DNA of 33,468 bases from assembly GCA_010356995.1 (NCBI GenBank), contig ML996710.1:258936-292403 (forward strand). Direction: 5' to 3'. The translations under genes and the position numbers were made by a program. Source of the stretch: Trichodelitschia bisporula (taxonomy: Eukaryota > Ascomycota > Dothideomycetes > Phaeotrichales > Phaeotrichaceae). The notes beneath the pieces are model-generated. The model was given only the letters and a program-made list of their open reading frames with translations, did no database searches and was not told the DNA's origin. Shown one piece after another: positions 1 to 31,775 of the stretch (within the stretch, counting starts at the first letter, position 1; each line of letters opens with the position of its first letter).

Positions 1-600
1 CATCGGACTTCCGGCGTCGTCCATCTTCGCCACTTCGGTGTTCGCCGTGCCAAGCCTGCCTTTCCGGGTAACACGACATCGGGTATGCCGACACAGACCC
101 CGTCTACCATCCCACCGGATCCACGGCCTAACCCTAACCCTAACCCTAACCTTAACCCTAACCCTCAATGCCCCTCCCCCTTCCCCTCCCTCATCGAAAA
201 CATCACCAGCCCAATCCAACCCCAACCCCAACCCTCACTCCCCCGCCTCCTCCTCCCCCCAAAGCAACCAGCTCCCTCCTCCTCCCCCACCGATCACAAC
301 ACGCAAACGCCCACTTCTCCCCCCCCATCCAAACCGCCACATACCTTATGTCAGGGTGTGCAAAAGTGTGGAAGTCACGATGGGTATGGTGCAGGCATGA
401 ACAACTTACTTCCACAAAGATCTATCTGAAGAGCGAGCCACCAGACTCTTTGTTACGGGGTGGGCAGTGGGAACACGGCACACTCGCGTTTTGGATGCGA
501 AGAGGTTCGATTGAAGTTTCTACATAATGAAGGACAAGCGACTTAAGTACAAGAGTGTAAACATCGCTGCTGGTGAGCTTCTCCGAGTGTCTCGGGCGTT
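1..600. other. Non-coding left edge
   Basis: Apart from the CCCTAA tract at 127-165 and C-rich low-complexity DNA at about 170-330, I see no gene. Open frames here are proline-rich by-products of the C-rich strand and have no family character. Confidence 0.5.
127..165 (+). repeat. Short telomere-like (CCCTAA)n tract
   Basis: About 6.5 head-to-tail CCCTAA units, one reading CCTTAA. This is the complement of TTAGGG, the telomere repeat of most filamentous fungi. The orientation (C-rich strand 5'->3' on +) is that of a left chromosome end, but unrelated sequence lies outside it at 1-126, so the tract is interstitial in this window. A further 70-150 bp downstream is C-rich with degenerate CCCCAA/CCCTCA units. 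It may be an old telomere scar, a subtelomeric boundary or a Tbf1/Rap1-type site; sequence alone cannot choose. Confidence 0.8.
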
Positions 601-1849: not shown

Positions 1850-3975
1850 TGCATGAGGCTAGGGTATGGACGTCGAAGGTGTATCCTGCGGAGTGGATAT
1901 AGACAGGTCAGTCCACGATGCCGGACGGGTTGGCCCGTAGTGCACCCAATCCTCCCCTTCTATCGTCGACTGAGCCCACACCCTGACAGTTTTGTCCGCT
2001 CTCCCTCTGTCTTCCACAGGCGGCGGGTTCCGTCACTCTAGAAAGCGTAAGCAGTACTCTGTATACCTCTTAGAAGCTCACAAGACACATTTGGTACACC
2101 GGGCCGCTTCGTGATTGGTGTCAGCACTTCTTGCTCGTAGCTCGTAACAGTTGTTTGACCTGTGACTCCCTATTCGGGGCGGCGAGGTCAGAGTGATGTT
2201 CGGAATAGTGGTGCTGACCGCAGTAAAGCTAATGGAAGTATAGGTTTGAGACGTTCAATAGCTGCGGTTTGAAGAAAGAGGTTGTAAAGAAGAAAGAGAG
2301 AGTTGGAGACAGTCCAGATAAAATTCGTTGCGGGTGCTCAGTATCCTCCGATGCTCCTTCCTCTTATTGCGCGCACATTACATCATATGTCTTCCTAAGA
2401 CTGATATGCTCCTTGCAACGGTAAGTACCGTTGATGCCATAGTGCCATAGATGCCCTGTACGCAGGCATGTACATCAAAGCTTAAGTCGGACTAGGAAAA
2501 AACGTCCGAGTCTACGCCTCCCAGCATTGTCCTCCTGCAACGTAGAGTCGCCTTGATGTCGGCGAGCCGTCGGGTATATGCCGCCAGGTGGCTTCCGTTA
2601 CGTAGGAGTTTAAAAGTCCCAATGGCGGTGCAAGTCTTAAGAGAAGCGGTCACTGTGCGAGGACTAGAACTAGCTGGTGATGAGTGGGTGACCGGGCCGC
2701 CTGCAGTTGCGATAAGATCAATAATATGCCCACTAGCTCTGGGTCTTAAGTATTTTCGCCATGGCAACGTGTCAAACAGGGAGCTCTAATTCAGCGGATG
2801 TTAGCACATATAAGACTACGATGAGCATCAATACTACTCTGCTCGCGGAGCCGGGCGAAGGAACCGCTGAAGAGACTGCCGGGTTGGCTTCCTTGCGGCA
2901 CGGCCTTCTTTACCGGCTGGCAGTAGCTAGCTCCAGATCGCTTATATCGAGCGGAGCACGTTCGGCTTCTAACGTACGATGTGAAGAGTGGATTGTGCTG
3001 GGTAGGAGAATACGGGCTGAGACCGCTATGGTTGGCTATCGAGTTCCGTATTGAAGCTTCGGTGGCTGTAGCCCTGGAATTGTCAGCCCGTCGAGAGAAG
3101 TGACGGTAATGGAGGGAGGCGCCGATAACGTTATAATGGGATACAGTCCAGCTCCGGCCTTCTAGAACTAGTATCAAAATCAGTCCGGAATCCAAGTTAA
3201 GAAAACCGACAGAATCCGCTATTCCGAGGATCTCTATAATTCCCGAGCCCCCAGCCTTACCCGCAGGCCACAGTGCTGATCACCTCGTGGATTAGTGTGA
3301 AACCGCTATATCGACCCTAGGGCCGATCTCCGCACCCAACATGCATATAAGATCGGGGCGAATCGGTCCATCCGGCCATCCCATTCCAGTACCGAACCCG
3401 CCTCCATTAGACCCTACCCGTACGCACCCTCATCGCCTCTCCCCGAACCTAGCGGAAACCAACCCTAACGCCGTCCGCAGCGCATCTCTAGACCCCTAGT
3501 TCTCACACTCTCAATCCCCAAATTGTACTCCCACCTCAAGCGACACCTTTAGCACTCCCGGCCCGCACTCCCGCCTCGGCCGGACCCGCGCCCACCAGAT
3601 TAGCGGATCTACCCGGCGCCGTTTGCTCCTTCCGCAGTACGCATGCGGGGTAACGACCCCGCCTTGAATCTCAGACGCCCATCTCGTTAACCCACGACAT
3701 GCGGGGATTGTCGTCAAATCACAATTATGATACCGGCGCCATCCTGAGCGGGCCTACCACGCAGACCACGCAAAAAACTTCTGAGGTCATGCACGCGCCT
3801 TGCGGGGCCTCGTCTCTTGCACTCACCGCTCGGCAGAGCATCCGCTGTCCCGCCCGCGCCCACATCACCCGTGCTAAAAAAGCAGGGTCCTGATTGCAGA
3901 GCCGCGGCGCGGCTCGGCACGCATTAGCTCGCCGAGTCGAAAAGGACGATATCGCGCGAACCCCATGACAAAAAG
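1850..3975. other. Gene-free stretch of about 2.1 kb
   Basis: No reading frame here has family character, a credible start with introns, or codon bias like the neighbouring genes. Composition is more even (near 50% GC) than in the genes. The only structure recognised is a copy of the dispersed repeat at about 2210-2415. The rest may be decayed repeat or old gene DNA. Confidence 0.5.
2210..2415 (+). repeat. Diverged dispersed repeat, copy 1 (possibly a solo LTR fossil)
   Basis: Colinear with 13532-13795. Shared blocks in the same order include GTGCTGACCGC, CAATAGCT.CGGT, a GAAGAAAGAGAGAG-type purine block and TGCTCCTTCCTC followed by GCACATTAC. Spacing differs by insertions or deletions and the copies are strongly diverged. 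A lone few-hundred-bp dispersed repeat with no internal coding region fits an old solo LTR, but I could not define clean ends, a target-site duplication or an internal domain. Family unknown; clearly old and not whole. Confidence 0.4.
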
Positions 3976-3978
3976 ACC

Positions 3979-4069
3979 TGCCCCCACGCCGATTTGAACG
4001 ACGGACCTTTGCATTTCGTGTGCACGGTAGACGTACAAGTGCAACGCTCTACCCCTGAGCTATAAGGGC
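3979..4069 (-). tRNA. tRNA-Thr (anticodon UGU) with a 19-nt intron
   Basis: On the minus strand the full cloverleaf folds. The acceptor is GCCCTTA/TGGGGGC with two G-U pairs and discriminator A at 3979. The D-arm is GCTC-AGGGGTA-GAGC and the anticodon stem TTGCA/TGCAA. The loop is CTTGTAA, which puts UGU at 34-36. The T-arm is CGTCG-TTCAAAT-CGGCG. The loop is interrupted after position 37 by 19 nt (4015-4033), the canonical site for eukaryotic nuclear tRNA introns. CCA is not encoded. It decodes ACA/ACG-type Thr codons. All stems are intact, so it is probably functional. Confidence 0.92.
4015..4033 (-). other. tRNA-Thr intron
   Basis: 19 nt immediately 3' of the base after the anticodon. Removing it restores a normal 7-nt anticodon loop on a perfect 5-bp stem. 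Confidence 0.85.
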
Positions 4070-7009: not shown

Positions 7010-8570
7010 AATGGGCAAGCATGCGCACCTCCGCCATCGCCTTTGTCGTTCCCGCTGGATCGCTGCCGTACCTAACGCGCAGCTATATACGGCTCCGAAA
7101 ACCGGTTCGCCAGACTGGCGCACGAGAACAAGCAGCGCTGGCTATGGTTTGCGCGACTTCTGGGTATTGTGCTGGTGCTGTTGACGCCCGACGTGGGCTC
7201 GAAGATTGAGTGGAGGCAGTGCGCCATTGACGATGGTGTAGTACTTGAGGTGTATGTGAGTTGCGGGGTCCTAAAAGAGGAGGAGTTGCTGACGGTGCTG
7301 ATATAGCCCGTATACATCATCTACTAGATCTTCCTCTCCCTCCGCGCTGGGCTCGGCAAATCCGAAAAGTGATTCCCCCGCCTCACGCACCTCCGAATCA
7401 CGCCTCCTCTCCACGTTACGCCCCGCCTTCTTCGCCAGCGCATCCCGTCAAACCCTCCCGTCATATGCCTCATGCAAACGCTCTTCACCCGCAATCCCGT
7501 TGCGTGCGCCTCTGGTTATGGTCGATGCTGTCCGCGATCGACGTCGAGACCCTGTTAGGCTGGCTAATTATGGCTGTTGGATGCTAGTCGGTGGATTTGC
7601 TGCGCGCCGGGGAATTGGGCTTTTCTGGCTAATGTGGGTCTTCGGGAGTCTACCGTATATGTTAAGTGCTGATGAACCGCAGGCGGTACGCTGGACTGCA
7701 ATGACGACGTCCGAGACGCTGCTCGAGCTGGCGCTTGTGAGTCCCGTGCGGCTACCGTGTGGGCCGTGGGCTTTCCCGTGGATATGAAGATTGAAGTCGG
7801 CGGCCCGTTTACCTGCCCTTTGATATCCGTCCCCCCTCCCTATCCCAAGCCTAATCACCATCCCAATAGCCCGCCTAGTATCTATCTCCCGCTCTGGACC
7901 TACCTGCACCACTACAACACGATCTTCAGCCAAGGCCACAGCAGCATCGACATCGTGCCCACCATGCTGACAGAGGTGTTCCAGGTCAGTGCGGTTGTGG
8001 CCCCGGCGCCGGTTATAATTCTTTTCTCAAATACAGGTCTCTCGCCGTATCACAAGCCGTGATACCGCAAAGGTCGGTTTTATGCCGTCGGGGGGCATAG
8101 GAGGGCTTGTAACTGACGTTCTGCATAAAGGATAAAATCCTCATGTGCGATTAATGTGGTCTCCTCAATATCTCCATCCAGGAAATCGTCGAAGAACTGA
8201 CGACAGAGCCCACCGAGGAAACACGACGGTGTTGAGGAAGCTTTCTCTCAGTTCCGCCTTGTCTTCTCGATGGCCTCCGTTGTCTCCTGTGATGACGTCC
8301 ATAAGGTCTCCAAAGATAAATAAAGTTTGGATGCCCCGAGTCCGACAAAGACTACATCGAGTGGCTTCGGGGCGTCCAATCTTTCTTCATCTTTGGCGAT
8401 CTTATGGACGTCATCAAACAGTAGACGGCAGAGCCCACCGAGAAGACAACTCGGTGTTCAATGGTCGCGGATCGCTCTGGATATACACTATCACGGAGCC
8501 AGAGCGCCTGATCACAATCTCAGGCGGTGGTTTGGAAGACAAAGCGATCTCGAGACCTACTAAAATCTAG
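7010..8570 (+). pseudogene. Decayed multi-pass membrane protein gene (unidentified)
   Basis: Several stretches read like one conserved membrane protein but in changing frames. About 7107-7253 encodes ENRFARLAHENKQRW, a hydrophobic helix, LLTPDVGSKIEW and a good GTGAGT donor; the exon after the expected acceptor begins PVYIIY and soon hits stops. About 7510-7740 encodes DPVRLANYGCWMLVGG, then GLFWLMWVFGSLPYML. About 7750-7985 encodes WAVGFPVDMKIEVGGP and LPLWTYLHHYNTIFSQG, then a GTCAGT donor. The last part (8145-8570) ends with TITEPERLITISGGG and a stop. The hydrophobic helices point to an integral membrane protein; I do not recognise the family. At least three frame changes or stops are needed, more than introns alone explain. 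Some could be unrecognised introns, so decay is likely but not proven. Confidence 0.45.
8180..8465 (+). repeat. Nested direct and inverted repeat cluster
   Basis: A segment of about 50-60 bp centred on GGCAGAGCCCACCGAG occurs at about 8405-8463 (+), again in diverged form at about 8185-8240 (+), and in reverse at about 8258-8300. Together with the adjoining block (GATGACGTCCATAAG... at 8289-8343 against its complement at about 8360-8416), the two inner copies form an imperfect palindrome with arms of about 85-95 bp and a spacer near 8345-8358. Both arms read similar peptides (YLWRPYGRH minus, HLWRSYGRH plus). It lies inside the decayed gene. Confidence 0.75.
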
Positions 8571-13024: not shown

Positions 13025-14470
13025 GGGGGGAGGGGGGATGAGGTGGGTTAATGGGGTATTGGAGGTCTGCGGGGCTAAGGCTGAGGTTGGGCACGAAATA
13101 CTCCTAGGCTTAGGCAGTACCAGGTGTTGGCGCTCCGCGATACAGCTGGATGTCTGGAGGTGAACGGTTAGACGGGTTCACGAGCGGCGCTCGGCTGGTC
13201 GAGGTGCTGTTAGGCTATGGATCGCGAAAGGTGCCTCGCCTGATATTCGAGACGGCGGTCGGCGAAGCGTCATCCGCGTAACGGGGGGAGGAAGGCGGAG
13301 ATGTACTACTAGTATCAAGGAAAGATTCCGCTCTCTGGAGCATTGAGATGCCAATCGCGGTGACGAACGCACCGAACGGCAGGTGCAGGTGAAAGAGAAG
13401 GTGACGGCAGGTACTTTACCGTTGAGATGGCGTCCCTTTTGCCAGCTTTATAACGCGGTTAGATATGTTGTGTAAGGATGGTATAGGTGTCCGTATGATG
13501 GGGAGTTAATTGAAGGACTCTGGATGAGTGGCTTGTGCTGACCGCGCGAGTTGACGACGTTGGAAGAGGAGCTGGTCGGCGAGCAGCTACTCGGGCCGAG
13601 GGGGATTAGAAGCACAGGCTTGATACGGACAATAGCTACGGTGCGAAGTGAACGGTTAATATAAAGACGAAGGAGCCGAGAGAGTCCGAGACGCCCGAGA
13701 CGCAAGTACATGATGTGGTAAACGTCGTCTGCTGCTCCTTCCTCCCGTCGTGAGCACATTACCACATCCCTTCCAAAGTATCATGTTCCTTTCCCAGGGT
13801 ATCACGCTTGCCTTGTGGCCTGTTTGCATTGCTGCCTGCTTGGCTGGGATGTGTCTATGCGCACCAGGGGAATGGTTGCGAGTGTTGTGTATTAGCGAGA
13901 TATGGGCGGGAACACCGAATGCGTAGACGACATGGGGAGTTGATGGCGATGCACGAGACTAATGGATGGGGAGGAATCTGGAGGTGCTGGCTGCGATGAC
14001 AGCACCATTTCGCCGAGCTGGGCATCGTGAAGTGTTTTGGTGGGTGATGACGGAGAGGAAGATACCAGGGCAAGACGGAGGAGGGCTGACGCGCGGAGAC
14101 ACGAGATGAGGATGCGATGGCAAAGGTGCGGGGACGAAGAGTTGAGGTCGGAGGAGAGTAGTGTCCGCTATCATGCGTTTGTGCACCGTTGCCAAGCATC
14201 TACGTCACGCGTCGCTGACGCGAGGGAGAGCGAACGGGACACAACAAGGCGAGATATCTTCCTCCGTTCGCGTCTTGCAGCAAGTTCGCCAAGACTCCGC
14301 GACCCATTCACTTCTGCACGCCCACTGGCCTCGCACTTCCTCGAACGAGAACACGCTCTTCGCCACAGGACACGACGCGTCCGTTCGCCATCGGCGTGAG
14401 CCGTGATATACGCGCTCTTGCAACACGAGCTGATGCATTCGGAGATACTCGGAACGAATAGGTGCAACTG
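13025..14470. other. Gene-free stretch with dispersed repeat copy 2
   Basis: About 1.45 kb with no recognisable gene. Carries the repeat at about 13530-13797. Frames at 13855-14576 overlap in several phases and have no family character. Ends at a duplicated 3' gene fragment. Confidence 0.5.
13530..13797 (+). repeat. Diverged dispersed repeat, copy 2 (possibly a solo LTR fossil)
   Basis: Colinear partner of the repeat at 2210-2415. This copy is GC-richer and longer, with a TATAAAGACGAAGG block followed by GAGAGAGTCCGAGAC and the shared CTCCTTCCTC...GCACATTACCACAT end. Homology may begin further left, near 13465 (TGTTGTGTAAGG). Old, lacks any internal coding part, element family unknown. Confidence 0.4.
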
Positions 14471-14645
14471 TTGGAAAGCGGTGGCTGTTTTCAGCCTTAC
14501 CCAGGTTCAGCCACAGGGCTCGAGTATAAGTAGACTCGGGATCCCCAGCTCTTTGACAATCAAGCAACTTGTTCATGGACAGACGTTCGGTCTAACTTGT
14601 GATGCTGTGATGTCTCCATCAGTCTCACACCTCCTTTTAACAGCA
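14471..14645 (+). pseudogene. 3' fragment of a paralogue of the gene at 30714-31665
   Basis: About 175 bp match 31602-31775 at roughly 90% by eye. The match starts within the last 20 codons, keeps the tail LLESGGCFQPYPGSATGLEYK and the TAG stop (LLESGGCVQPYQVSATGLKYK in the other copy), and continues about 110 bp into 3' flanking DNA. Weak similarity extends about 20-30 bp further left and then is lost, so only the gene's end is here. A short in-frame TAG sits just before the conserved tail. It is a truncated duplicate with no credible coding capacity. Confidence 0.8.
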
Positions 14646-15977: not shown

Positions 15978-16680
15978 TGCGGGGGAAGGGCGTGCGAAAA
16001 GGTGGTTGAGTGTGTGTTGTTGAAGCGGAGTTGAAGTTGAGTTGATGCTGAACCTGATGATATTCTGATACTCCTTCGCGGGCGAGCCTCTTTATAATCC
16101 TCCCCCATCCCTTCCCTCGGCCGGCCACTCCGTCTACCGTACGGTAAGGCTGCGAGCTCACCACACAGCCAAGCCCCGTGCCTAACCCACTGCGTACCTG
16201 ATTTTGTAAGCACGTTCCCCAACTTACTCCCCATCAGCGAGGCTGCAGCGCCGGCACGCAAACCCAGCCTTGTGCCCCGCCATGGGGCGCCTGACTTTGT
16301 CAGCTCATTCCAGAAAGCCATTGCTCATATCGGTATATAGAGTCAACGTTGAGCCGGGCAGCAACTTTATTCCAGCCAAACGCTCGGAGGGGGCTAGGTT
16401 CCGAGCCGTGGATTTCTAATCAGCGGCTGGAGGATTCTCCGCTCCCTTTGTCATCCGCGCAACAACAACCATCCGGGTTACAGATGCGGCGACGGGTGCA
16501 GCGAGCGATCTGGGCACGTGGTTTTTGGCGTAGTGATGATTCCTGGCCGACAACGGTGATGTGGCTTGGAAGGAGCATTCATATGTCAGGAAGGCGCAGA
16601 CTTCGGGGGGTATGATGTAATGCGCGCATGATAGAAGGAAGGAGCAATGGAGGATACTTGGCATCGTGGACTTGAACCTC
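15978..16680. other. Intergenic, GST promoter side
   Basis: Holds the GST upstream region. On the minus strand two imperfectly similar blocks, LTKSG-encoding DNA near 16190-16215 and 16285-16305, hint at a small old tandem duplication of about 95-100 bp. No gene recognised. Confidence 0.4.
16091..16096 (-). promoter_or_regulatory. Putative TATA box of the GST gene
   Basis: TATAAA on the minus strand about 115 bp upstream of the ATG at 15977, followed by GC-rich DNA. Spacing would allow an 80-nt leader. Confidence 0.4.
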
Positions 16681-16682
16681 AA

Positions 16683-16752
16683 TCCTCTCTTCCTCTCTTC
16701 CTCTCTTCCTCTCTTCCTCTCTTCCTCTCTTCCTCTCTTCCGCTCTTCCTCT
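16683..16752 (+). repeat. 8-bp microsatellite (CTTCCTCT)n
   Basis: About eight and a half near-perfect units, one with a G for T change near the right end. Pure pyrimidine on +, so an H-DNA-prone tract. It directly precedes the 297-bp tandem array. Confidence 0.92.
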
Positions 16753-16814
16753 CCCCGCCTTCTACTTCAATCTCCTGTTTACGCAGTTGCCGCTGCCTGT
16801 GTACGAGCTTTACT

Positions 16815-17995
16815 CCCATCAAACGGTATCGCAAAGACTCCCGACACGCGGCATTTCGGCACGAACATATTGAGTAGAGGTGAGTTTGCTTCAGGCAGAA
16901 GCCCTCTGGCATCACGACGATCGTGTGGATAGCTTCAGATTCTTCCTAGCTTATCCCCAAATCCACTCACATTTCTCCCAAGTTGGCTGTATCAAGGCTT
17001 TCCGACAACATCGACAATGCCATCCCTTACAATCTGCCACTCCCACTCAACGACGCCTTCGCAAACGGCAGAAAAACACTTCTCCACCACCTCCTCACTC
17101 TGCCCCGACTCCCATCAAGCGACATCGCGAAGAGTCCCGGCACACGGCATTTCGGCACGAACATATTGAGTAAGAGGTGAGTTGCTTCAGGCAGAAACCC
17201 CTCTGGCATCACGACGATCGTGTGGATAGCTTCACATTCTTCCTAGCTTATCCCCAAATCCACTCACATTTCTCCCAAGTTGGCTGTATCAAGGCTTTCC
17301 GACAACATCGACAATGCCATCCCTTACAATCTACCACTTCCACTCAACGATGCCTTCGCAAACGGCAGAAAAACACTTCTCCACCACCTCCTCACTCCGC
17401 CCCGACTCCCATCAAGCGACATCGCGAAGAGTCCCGGCACACGGCATTTCGGCACGAACATATTGAGTAAGAGGTGAGTTGCTTCAGGCAGAAACCCCTC
17501 TGGCATCACGACGATCGTGTGGATAGCTTCACATTCTTCCTAGCTTATCCCCAAATCCACTCACATTTCTCCCAAGTTGGCTGTATCAAGGCTTTCCGAC
17601 AACATCGACAATGCCATCCCTTACAATCTACCACTTCCACTCAACGATGCCTTCGCAAACGGCAGAAAAACACTTCTCCACCACCTCCTCACTCCGCCCC
17701 GACTCCCATCAAACGGCATCGCGAAGAGTCCCGGCACACGGCATTTCGTCACGAAAACTCGTTAAGTGGTCGTCAGCTGCCCGAGGCAAAAATCCTTTGG
17801 CATCACGACGATCGCGCGGATAGCGTCCGGCACTTCATATATTCATCCCGAATCCACACCCATTTCTCCCACGTTAACCTCATTCAGGCTTCCATCAACA
17901 CTCCCCAATGCCATTTGTACCCTACCCTTTCAAACTCGCCCTTACAAACGGCCGAAAATACTTCTCCACCACCTCCTCACTCCGCCACCCACTCC
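16815..17995 (-). repeat. 297-bp tandem array derived from the GH5 gene's 3' end
   Basis: Units start at 16815 (296 bp), 17111, 17408 and 17705. The first three are nearly identical to one another. The fourth is clearly diverged and runs into the GH5 coding region (about 17930-17995). Read on the minus strand, each unit begins with DNA matching the last codons of the GH5 gene (SEEVVEK, then a changed tail) and continues through about 230 bp of its 3' flank. The array therefore grew by repeated duplication of the gene's end plus downstream DNA, outward from the gene. The period of 99 codons leaves a 97-codon open frame in each unit, which I regard as a by-product. Confidence 0.93.
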
Positions 17996-19197
17996 AATCT
18001 TTCTTTAACAACCCCCACGCCTCATCAAACTCCTGCTTCCCGCTGCGGATATAATAACTCCCCGACAACACCCACACCATCCACCCAGCCTTGTTCTGCA
18101 CCAGATAGTCCCTCAAACACGTCGCATACACACTTCCCGCCGTCTTCATGTCCTGCGCAAACCCGAACTCACTCATCACGACCGGCAAAACATTCGCTAC
18201 CCCCTTATCACTCTCGTTCAACGCGTTCCATCCGTGGTTGTACAAGCCCCCGCGTATGTTCCCGCAGTTTTTTTCGTTGTTTTGGTAGTTGTGCAGTTCG
18301 AGCGCGATTTTGTTGGGCAGGAAATCGCTCTTTTTGAGCACCTTTGTGTCGCGTACGACGGCCGTGAGATCCGTGTCGAATCCGAATCCGGAGAGAAACA
18401 CGATGAGGCTCGGATTCGCGGCATGCACCTCGCCCGCCGCGGCGCGCATATGCGTGTACCAGTCGCCCCATTTATAACTCCGCTCCTTGAGCTGCGGGTT
18501 ATTATCCGGTGCGCGCAACTCGTTCCGCAGGCCCACACTCCCCAGCGCCGTCCAGCTCCGCGTCTAGGCGATCAGCCTTTCCCCATCAACCCTAGGGGTA
18601 AGCAAGGCGGGCCGCCTGGGGGGGACTCACATAATTCGCCATAAAGCTCCACCCTCGTTTCCACTTCGCAGCATCGAAATCCGTGTCCCCGAACCAGGAA
18701 TTCCCGTCTTTGGTGCTGCAGCACCACGTCGCGCGGGAGATGTGATTGTCCAAATGCACTACTACACCCGCTTTGCCCAACTCCCGTGCCACGAGGTCGA
18801 ACACCTCCAGCCGTCCCGCCTGTTCCCTTAACCCCGCATTCCTCTTTCGTATCTCCCCCCAAACCCTCGTCCCGTTTTCCCGTCCCAAGGCTTTTATCAA
18901 TCCTTCCTTAGCCGGAACGTCGGACCCCCGCGCCACGTGCTCGTCCACCATTTGCGTGGCGTAGGTGAGGCGCACGACGTTCATGCCCAGCGAGGTGATG
19001 TGCCCTGCGATGGAGGCGGCGGATTGGTGCGCTAGGCCCTCTGGGAGCATGGCTTCTTGGTGGCCGGGCCAGTTTGTCCCGGCGTATGTGACGCGTTTGC
19101 CGGCGGCGTCGTGGATCCAGCGGCCGGAGGTTGTGAGGGGGAGGGGGGGGAGGGCGGCGGAGGCGAGCGCCGCGAGGAGGAGGAGGTGCAGGCGCAT
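17922..19197 (-). CDS. Secreted GH5 cellulase / beta-glucanase
   Basis: Retaining glycoside hydrolase of family 5, cleaving beta-1,4-glucan or a related beta-glycan outside the cell. Exon 1 (19197-18631) begins with a signal peptide (MRLHLLLLAALASAALPPLP); a 67-bp intron (18564-18630, GTGAGT...GCCTAG) joins FMANY to TRSWTALG; exon 2 ends at 17922, giving 402 aa. Family marks: RWIHDAAGKRVTYAGTNWPG, GMNVVRLTYATQMV, VVHLDNHISRATWCC, acid/base Glu204 in GLRNELR, IALELHNYQ, and nucleophile Glu321 in VMSEFGFAQ, then WMVWVLSGSYYIRSGKQ and DWSGWRS near the end. No carbohydrate-binding module. I chose the start at 19197 because the upstream in-frame ATG (19263) would put a polar stretch before the signal peptide. 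Its 3' end seeded the neighbouring tandem array. Confidence 0.94.
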
Positions 19198-30713: not shown

Positions 30714-31665
30714 ATGACCGACGTCCTGGGCTTCCCAATCCATGTACGTTTCTCACCGCAACGGCGATTGCAAAGGGGCCAGCATGCTAACCGAATAGGG
30801 AGTGAATGTTCTCGTGCACAAAGCATACGGGGCGCTATTCTTCTTCAAGGACGGGTGCGTTGTGGGCATTCTCCTCCCGGATGACTGCGTCGCCGTCCGC
30901 ATCGACAACATGGACCCGGATGTGACCCCGGAGCAAATCTTCATCTCGTACTTCCGCAAACAATATGTCACCGAGGCGGATGTTACGATCGTCAACAAGG
31001 ACGACTCGTCATACCGCCAAGGGACGGAGAAGGTATCGACGATTGTGAAGGTGCCGACCTCGGCCGTCGGCAAGCGCTTCTGCGTACTGAATGCACATTT
31101 CGACGCACTGAACGGAAAACTGGACCCACATTGGCTCATCCACTCACCATCGAAGTCCGGTCTGCGTACCTTTGATTGCCACCGCATTCTAGTATCGTGG
31201 CTCGAGGCCAAACAGAAGGCCCTGGACGTAGCCCGCAGTACGCTGGTGCAGGAAGGCGCTGTTCCTTGGACTGCTCGAATGAGGGCCCCCTGAGGCGTAG
31301 CACGTATTCGCTTCAGGAACGAGAGCGACGTGTACAACGTCTTGAAGACAATAGCCAACTCTCCGAAGTTTAAAGATCTTGAGGCCTCGCAGATCTTTTC
31401 CGTCAAATTTTGTATTCCATACGCCCTCGTAACGGCAAGTACGTCTCAGCTGGAGCCTCTTAAGGCCCGGGCTGTTGCAAGCAAGGTTCAGATTAGCTTT
31501 CGGAGAGTACATGGGCACGACGGGGATCTTTACAACGTCATCATCTTCGAGAGCCTGAACAAGGATTGTCTGACCTCCACCACTCGTGAGTTGGAGACTC
31601 TGCTGGAAAGCGGTGGCTGTGTTCAGCCTTACCAAGTTTCAGCCACAGGGCTCAAGTATAAGTAG
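30714..31665 (+). CDS. Unrecognised 277-aa protein, three exons
   Basis: I do not recognise this family. Exons 30714-30743, 30799-31237 and 31301-31665 join in frame to 277 aa. Intron 1 (55 bp) is GTACGT...GAATAG with CTAAC; intron 2 (63 bp) is GTACGC...GCGTAG with CTGAG, and its removal also removes an in-frame TGA. The protein starts MTDVLGFPIHGVNVLVHKAYG. It has no signal peptide or membrane helix and is a mixed alpha/beta soluble sequence, with conserved-looking blocks GCVVGILLPDDCVAVRID, KRFCVLNAHFDALNG, HRILVSWLEAKQKALD and VQISFRRVHGHDGDLYNV. It ends LLESGGCVQPYQVSATGLKYK. The same ending and 3' flank recur at 14471-14645, showing a multi-copy family. Three-exon structure with good splice sites argues for a real gene. 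Codon use is less GC-biased than in the hydrolase genes. Confidence 0.7.
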
Positions 31666-31775
31666 ACTCGGGATCCCCACCTCTTTGACAATCAAGCAAC
31701 TAGTTTATGGACACACCTTTGGTCCAACTTATGATGCTGTGATGTCTCCCTTGATCACACATCCCCTTTTAACAG
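31602..31775 (+). repeat. Segmental duplication, partner of 14471-14645
   Basis: Covers the last 20 codons of the 277-aa gene plus about 110 bp of 3' flank (through ...GATGCTGTGATGTCTCC and CCTTTTAACAG). Roughly 90% identical to the copy 17.1 kb to the left in the same orientation. Both breakpoints are sharp on the right side, near the CTTTTAACAG shared end. Confidence 0.85.

What the first reader, a model, noticed from the sequence alone, without database searches (positions are those of the whole stretch)
16815..17995. Tandem array grown from the 3' end of a cellulase gene
Three near-identical 297-bp units plus a diverged fourth sit directly downstream of the GH5 gene. Each unit holds the gene's last codons (SEEVVEK region) and about 230 bp of 3' flank. 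The gene-proximal unit is the most diverged; the distal ones are homogenised. This suggests repeated unequal crossover or slippage anchored in a gene end, giving a chain of possible poly(A)/termination regions behind a secreted enzyme gene. It could alter transcript ends or make antisense starts; I know of no described case in this gene family.
Basis: seen in the sequence. Interest (0 to 1): 0.8.

Follow-up and report, generated by a model that had tools for sequence, protein, structure and literature searches.

The report
Repeated tail end of fungal gene
Behind what looks like a fungal sugar-enzyme gene, the last few codons plus the DNA just after them have been copied in tandem into a small, decaying array, most likely an ordinary copying accident between two short matching sequences.

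Summary
The array is real. On the minus strand it reads: gene end (17703-17999), two identical 297-bp units (17406-17702, 17109-17405), and a third unit 93-96% like them (16812-17108). Each unit carries a copy of the last 25 codons or so of a GH5-type gene plus about 220 bp of 3' flank. The 'diverged fourth unit' is the gene's own end.

Every boundary carries one 9-mer: GATTGGAGT inside the gene (17991-17999), GATGGGAGT at 17702, 17405, 17108 and 16812. The single-copy ancestor was therefore, by inference, already flanked by a direct repeat matching at 8 of 9 bases, the anatomy reported for yeast minisatellites. A later in-register gain explains the identical pair.

The units do not look like working gene ends: relative to the gene each has a 1-bp frameshifting insertion, and the one poly(A)-like hexamer in the gene's flank is missing from them. 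I found no RNA structure and no clear RIP signature. A distant, presumably fungal GH5 relative shows no tandem repeat in the 5.3 kb held.

Verdict: observation confirmed, origin supported; the proposed effect on transcript ends or antisense starts has no support, though no RNA data exist to exclude it. An ordinary process. Close relatives were not available.

The parts
17922..19197 (-). GH5-type, apparently secreted glycoside hydrolase gene, 402 aa, one 67-nt intron (18564-18630), stop 17922-17924
   Evidence: Gene model (signal peptide judged by eye); intron after the aligned residue pair NY/KH, phase 0, and 43% identity in relative L001; GH5 matches in the PDB; PF00150 hit of the relative only, not of the window protein
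17703..17999 (-). U4: the gene's own last 25 codons plus stop and about 220 bp of 3' flank; template of the array
   Evidence: Alignment
17406..17702 (-). U3: tandem unit, identical to U2, coding remnant frameshifted relative to the gene
17109..17405 (-). U2: tandem unit, identical to U3
16812..17108 (-). U1: outermost unit, 13 substitutions in 295 sites from U2
17991..17999 (-). GATTGGAGT inside the gene (codons D-W-S): gene-side flanking direct repeat
17702..17710 (-). GATGGGAGT at the U4/U3 boundary
17405..17413 (-). GATGGGAGT at the U3/U2 boundary
17108..17116 (-). GATGGGAGT at the U2/U1 boundary
16812..16820 (-). GATGGGAGT at the distal end, next to unique DNA: flank-side direct repeat

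Best explanation
A single-copy 3' end of a GH5-type gene was duplicated once between two near-identical 9-bp direct repeats: GATTGGAGT in the last codons and GATGGGAGT about 290 bp away in the 3' flank. The step was slippage, microhomology-primed repair, or unequal exchange. The extra copy was free of coding constraint, took a 1-bp frameshifting insertion and decayed. It was later multiplied by in-register unequal exchange or slippage over the 297-bp homology, the last gain being so recent that U2 and U3 are identical. Exchange or conversion near unit boundaries explains the mosaic identity between gene end and units. The array has no function I can see. Shown here: anatomy, boundary 9-mers, unit divergences, frameshift relative to the gene. 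Inferred: the molecular mechanism, the order of events, and lack of function.
For: All five unit boundaries carry GATKGGAGT; there are 6 matches in the whole window, 0.58 expected, and 0 of 100 shuffles reach 6. The gene copy and the distal copy next to unique DNA imply that the repeat pair predates the array. The analytic chance of at least 8 of 9 matches at one exact breakpoint is 1.4e-4. The units are frameshifted relative to the gene. U2/U3 share an exact 314-bp run, 297 plus 17, as one in-register one-unit gain would leave. Identity between U4 and U3 is unevenly spread: longest runs 32, 27 and 17 in 317 columns with 236 matches; permutation P 0.0022, 0.00005 and 0.0036 for longest, second and third (20,000 shuffles). 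The two longest lie close to the unit boundary, one on either side. A distant GH5 relative has no tandem repeat in the 5307 bases held. Haber and Louis 1998, as quoted in PMC4232551 (Discussion part 1), noted that yeast minisatellites were often flanked by 5-10 bp direct repeats.
Against: No close relative or second isolate could be examined, so the single-copy ancestor is inferred and not seen. The relative L001 is distant (43% identity). Slippage, break-induced replication and unequal exchange cannot be told apart from one sequence. The GATKGGAGT shuffle count is inflated because the internal boundary copies are repeats of one another. The 27-bp identical run lies in coding sequence and may partly reflect constraint on the gene side. 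The unit tail keeps 7 of 11 residues of the gene, P 0.14 with U1 and 0.03 with U3, which leaves room for a former coding paralogue.
Confidence: 0.77

Rival explanations
1. The units are remnants of one or more full-length tandem GH5 paralogues whose 5' parts were deleted between the upstream copy's 3' flank and the downstream copy's last codons.
For: Gene end and units differ by about 18-26%, so the split is old. The tail keeps 7 of 11 residues although U1 has 9 of 33 bases changed; placing the changes at random gives 5.3 residues on average, P 0.14 with U1; with U3 (11 changes) 4.4 on average, P 0.03 (20,000 trials each).
Against: In the array tblastn (E up to 10) gives four matches, all within codons 379-402, and nothing further upstream. 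U1, which has the gene's base at the two extra U3 changes, gives no significant result. The boundary 9-mer makes the simpler single event sufficient.
Confidence: 0.12
2. The array is kept by selection as a string of regulatory sites: a terminator chain for the GH5 gene, or an upstream element of the glutathione S-transferase gene whose ORF starts 834 bp beyond its distal end.
For: Blocks of 32 and 17 identical bases in the flank survive between gene end and U3. The array lies between the GH5 3' end and the start of a GST ORF on the same strand. TGTA occurs once in each unit on the sense strand.
Against: Five U1 changes fall in the 32-base block. The AATATA hexamer is absent from the units. RNA folding of U2 is no better than shuffles: z +0.92, 163 of 200 fold at least as well. 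No Rfam match in the array.
Confidence: 0.05
3. The identity of U2 and U3 is an assembly error and the true array has one unit fewer (or more). This can hold together with the best explanation.
For: U2 and U3 are identical over 314 bp, which is where assemblers err.
Against: No reads are available either way. U1, U2 and U4 are distinguishable, so an array remains in any case.
Confidence: 0.1

Closest known systems
Yeast minisatellites flanked by 5-10 bp direct repeats (Haber and Louis 1998, seen only as quoted in PMC4232551)
   Same: Array bounded by a short direct repeat that by inference was present before duplication; growth by slippage or unequal crossover is the mechanism suggested there and here
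   Different: Unit is 297 bp, longer than units usually called minisatellite (recalled); low copy number; lies at a gene's 3' end
CUP1 tandem arrays of Saccharomyces cerevisiae (PMC4232551: abstract, start of introduction and Discussion part 1 seen)
   Same: Tandem array born from single-copy DNA; breakpoints may fall in neighbouring genes
   Different: CUP1 units hold a whole gene for copper resistance, and their junctions have 3 bp of homology or less; here only a gene tail with a 9-bp imperfect homology, and no sign of selection found
Partial gene duplications (review PMC3449122, passages seen)
   Same: Only part of a gene is copied
   Different: Here the copy is a 25-codon tail, frameshifted and multiplied

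Membership tests
Tandem array born between short flanking direct repeats (Haber-Louis type) | Head-to-tail homologous units | tested here: met
Tandem array born between short flanking direct repeats (Haber-Louis type) | 5-10 bp direct repeat at both ends of the ancestral segment | tested here: met
   GATTGGAGT / GATGGGAGT, 8 of 9 bases, at all five boundaries
Tandem array born between short flanking direct repeats (Haber-Louis type) | Single-copy ancestor or allele | tested here: inconclusive
   Distant relative L001 has no tandem repeat, but no close relative is held
Minisatellite in the strict sense | Unit of roughly 10-100 bp (definition recalled) | tested here: not met
   Unit 297 bp
Minisatellite in the strict sense | Copy number varies between isolates | not testable with these tools
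   Only one sequence of this locus at hand
GH5 glycoside hydrolase (host gene) | Homology to GH5 enzymes with known structure | tested here: met
   CelE2 E 3.4e-10, endocellulase E1 E 1.7e-5, with a two-sequence profile 2.8e-12 for CelE2; that these are GH5 is recalled. Relative L001 hits PF00150 at 5.2e-14; the window protein itself hits no Pfam model even at E 10, and in NCBIfam only an unrelated model at E 0.12
GH5 glycoside hydrolase (host gene) | Two catalytic glutamates (motifs recalled) | tested here: met
   E204 in RNE and E321 in SEFG (SEWG in the relative), both invariant between the two sequences
RIP-mutated repeat | TpA/ApT at least 0.89 and (CpA+TpG)/(ApC+GpT) at most 1.03; C-to-T changes mainly in CpA | tested here: not met
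   Array 0.46 and 1.24, whole window 0.70 and 1.15. Transitions in CpA/TpG context: 2 of 10 for U1-U2, 8 of 26 for U4-U2, 14 of 35 for U4-U1, where it is the largest class. The 0.89 cut-off and the warning that indices are unreliable are from PMC2621366 passages; the 1.03 cut-off is there too, but its formula is printed differently in that passage, and the form used is recalled

The most novel reading that the evidence does not exclude
The array is an active hazard for the gene it came from: the 27-bp identical stretch at the gene end lets decayed units convert or cross over into the gene, so isolates may carry enzymes with swapped, frameshifted C-termini, and the mosaic U4 is a trace of such exchange.
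Probability: 0.08. Interest if true: 0.5.

Novelty: new member of a known kind. Interest (0 to 1): 0.2.

Why it matters
It is a readable small example of how tandem DNA begins: both parental short repeats, the decayed frameshifted copies and a fresh identical pair are all visible beside a gene. It makes the flanking-repeat model testable in isolates of this organism, but it does not change what is known about tandem repeats or about GH5 genes.

Tried and rejected
Whole-genome search: none is held for this window. Plasmid tblastn of the protein: 18 records, 8 of them listed, bacterial, best listed identity 27%, best listed E 3e-12. Viral contigs gave no relative of the protein and no exact match to a 26-base block of the unit. 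Rfam: one tRNA outside the array. RNA folding of U2: no better than shuffles; energies alone were computed for U1, U2 and U4 on both strands without controls. Array region against L001 by sensitive blastn: matches in coding parts, and a weak 30-33 base match of the three units to the start of the L001 coding sequence (E 0.01, about 80% identity), taken as chance.

A further, more diverged unit was sought by local alignment of U2 and U4 with three stretches on both strands (12 comparisons, 100 simple shuffles each, no correction; the microsatellite 16683-16753 left out). Distal stretch 16200-16682: 16 and 70 of 100 shuffles reach the score in the same orientation, 7 and 3 on the opposite strand. 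16754-16811: 50, 20, 42, 47. Gene stretch 18000-18600: 4 and 2 in the same orientation, 99 and 46 on the other. I read these as composition effects, not as a fifth unit.

Reading the antisense ORF 17474-18337 as a gene: only one chance-level Pfam match, E 2.5. RIP as the cause of divergence: not supported, though CpA is the largest class in the U4-U1 comparison.

Literature: the only search naming cellulase genes, listed 7 papers, none with a title on such an array; others (20 listed; 10; 1; 12 of 24) on tandem repeats showed none by title either; one search found none; (10 of 13 listed) was about RIP. The library holds open-licence papers only, and titles and abstract starts alone were seen except where stated, so this is no proof that nothing is in print.

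Full report
Source. That it is a filamentous fungus is my inference from the intron-bearing genes and their families; no call shows it.

Observation. The array lies at 16812-17999 and reads on the minus strand, the strand of the gene. TRF gives a 297-bp period with score 1753. The four segments are U4 17703-17999, U3 17406-17702, U2 17109-17405 and U1 16812-17108. U2 and U3 are identical, and the exact run at shift 297 is 314 bp. U1 matches U2 at 282 of 295 sites pairwise or 279 of 300 in the four-way alignment. U4 matches U2 at 217 of 292 sites in the four-way alignment, or 228 of 279 in a pairwise alignment with freer gaps, so its divergence is 18-26% depending on the alignment.

The gene. 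The minus-strand gene starts at 19197, has one 67-nt intron (18564-18630) and ends with TAG at 17924-17922, giving 402 aa. No Pfam model matches it, even at E 10. PDB sequence searches give CelE2 and endocellulase E1, GH5 enzymes by recall. The genome collection scan, which reaches close relatives only, gave one relative, L001, an intron-bearing and so presumably fungal contig filed under a bacterial MAG (the fungal reading is mine). It has 43% identity over the alignment, a phase-0 intron after the aligned residue pair (NY in the window, KH in L001), and hits PF00150 at 5.2e-14. Its C-terminus aligns with that of the window gene to the last residues. The window gene's end is therefore probably the normal end, and the units are the derived part. 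No tandem repeat was found in the 5307 bases held of that locus.

What a unit holds. Counting from the boundary 9-mer, the copied segment is the last 25 codons (D378 to G402) with the stop and about 220 bp of flank. Relative to the gene, all three units have a 1-bp insertion in the T run at codons 390-391, which shifts the frame. tblastn finds the gene tail in the array as codons 379-392 in all three units and codons 392-402 in another frame in U3, at E 0.38 to 1.2, and nothing upstream of codon 379.

Boundaries. GATKGGAGT occurs six times in the window, five of them at the unit boundaries. The count is not five independent events, since inner copies are repeats of one another. The telling pair is GATTGGAGT inside the gene and GATGGGAGT at 16812-16820 against unique DNA. 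Both should have been there before the array. By simple base composition, at least 8 of 9 matches at one exact breakpoint has probability 1.4e-4. This is the anatomy that Haber and Louis reported for yeast minisatellites, as quoted in PMC4232551 (Discussion part 1).

History, inferred. First came one old duplication of the gene end across the 9-mers, then decay of the copy. Next the copy was amplified: U1 split from the U2/U3 lineage at about 4% divergence, and U2/U3 split with no change since. Identity between U4 and U3 is patchy, with longest runs of 32, 27 and 17 (permutation P 0.0022, 0.00005 and 0.0036 by rank). The two longest runs lie close to the unit boundary, one on either side, as a crossover or conversion point near the boundary would leave; constraint on the coding side could give part of the 27. 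The outer unit U1 has five private changes inside the 32-base block, as expected of an edge unit that exchanges least.

Function. The gene's own flank has an AATATA; the units have none, nor AATAAA or ATTAAA on either strand, while TGTA occurs once per unit on the sense strand. U2 folds no better than its shuffles (z +0.92, 163 of 200 at least as stable), and Rfam finds nothing in the array. RIP indices are far from the cut-offs. Transitions in CpA/TpG context are 2 of 10 between U1 and U2, 8 of 26 between U4 and U2, and 14 of 35 between U4 and U1, where they are the largest class; so RIP is not supported but a slight trace in the old split is not excluded. I see no support for a terminator chain or antisense starts, and no transcript data to exclude them.

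Against my reading. The tail of the unit keeps 7 of 11 residues of the gene. With U1 this is within chance (P 0.14), with U3 it is P 0.03. At the two changes that U3 has beyond U1, U1 has the gene's base, so U1 is the fairer test, but a decayed full-length paralogue is not excluded. No close relative was at hand, so the single-copy ancestor is inferred.

Verdict. A true, well-preserved, small example of tandem array birth at a gene's 3' end; an ordinary process; no function shown.

Noticed in passing
window 127-165: Telomere-like (CCCTAA)n run of 6.5 copies near, but not at, the start of the window.
   Followed up: no
window 16683-16753: (TCCTCTCT) microsatellite of about 9 copies; 58 bp separate it from the distal end of the array.
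   Followed up: no
window 14468-14643 and 31600-31775: A 176-bp dispersed direct repeat, 88.6% identical.
   Followed up: no
window 8254-8454: A stretch of about 200 bp that matches its own reverse complement at 75%, a long imperfect palindrome.
   Followed up: no
window 2235-2423, 13609-13801, 16611-16663: Three copies of a weak dispersed repeat (64% for the first two; 81% over 53 bases for the first and third, inverted); the third lies about 150 bp beyond the array.
   Followed up: partly
window 3979-4069 minus strand: tRNA gene, Rfam RF00005 at 52 bits; ARAGORN (bacterial mode) gives no clear anticodon, perhaps because of an intron.
   Followed up: no
L001: Intron-bearing GH5 gene on a contig filed as a Deltaproteobacteria MAG (NYXK01000225.1), probably fungal contamination.
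   Followed up: partly
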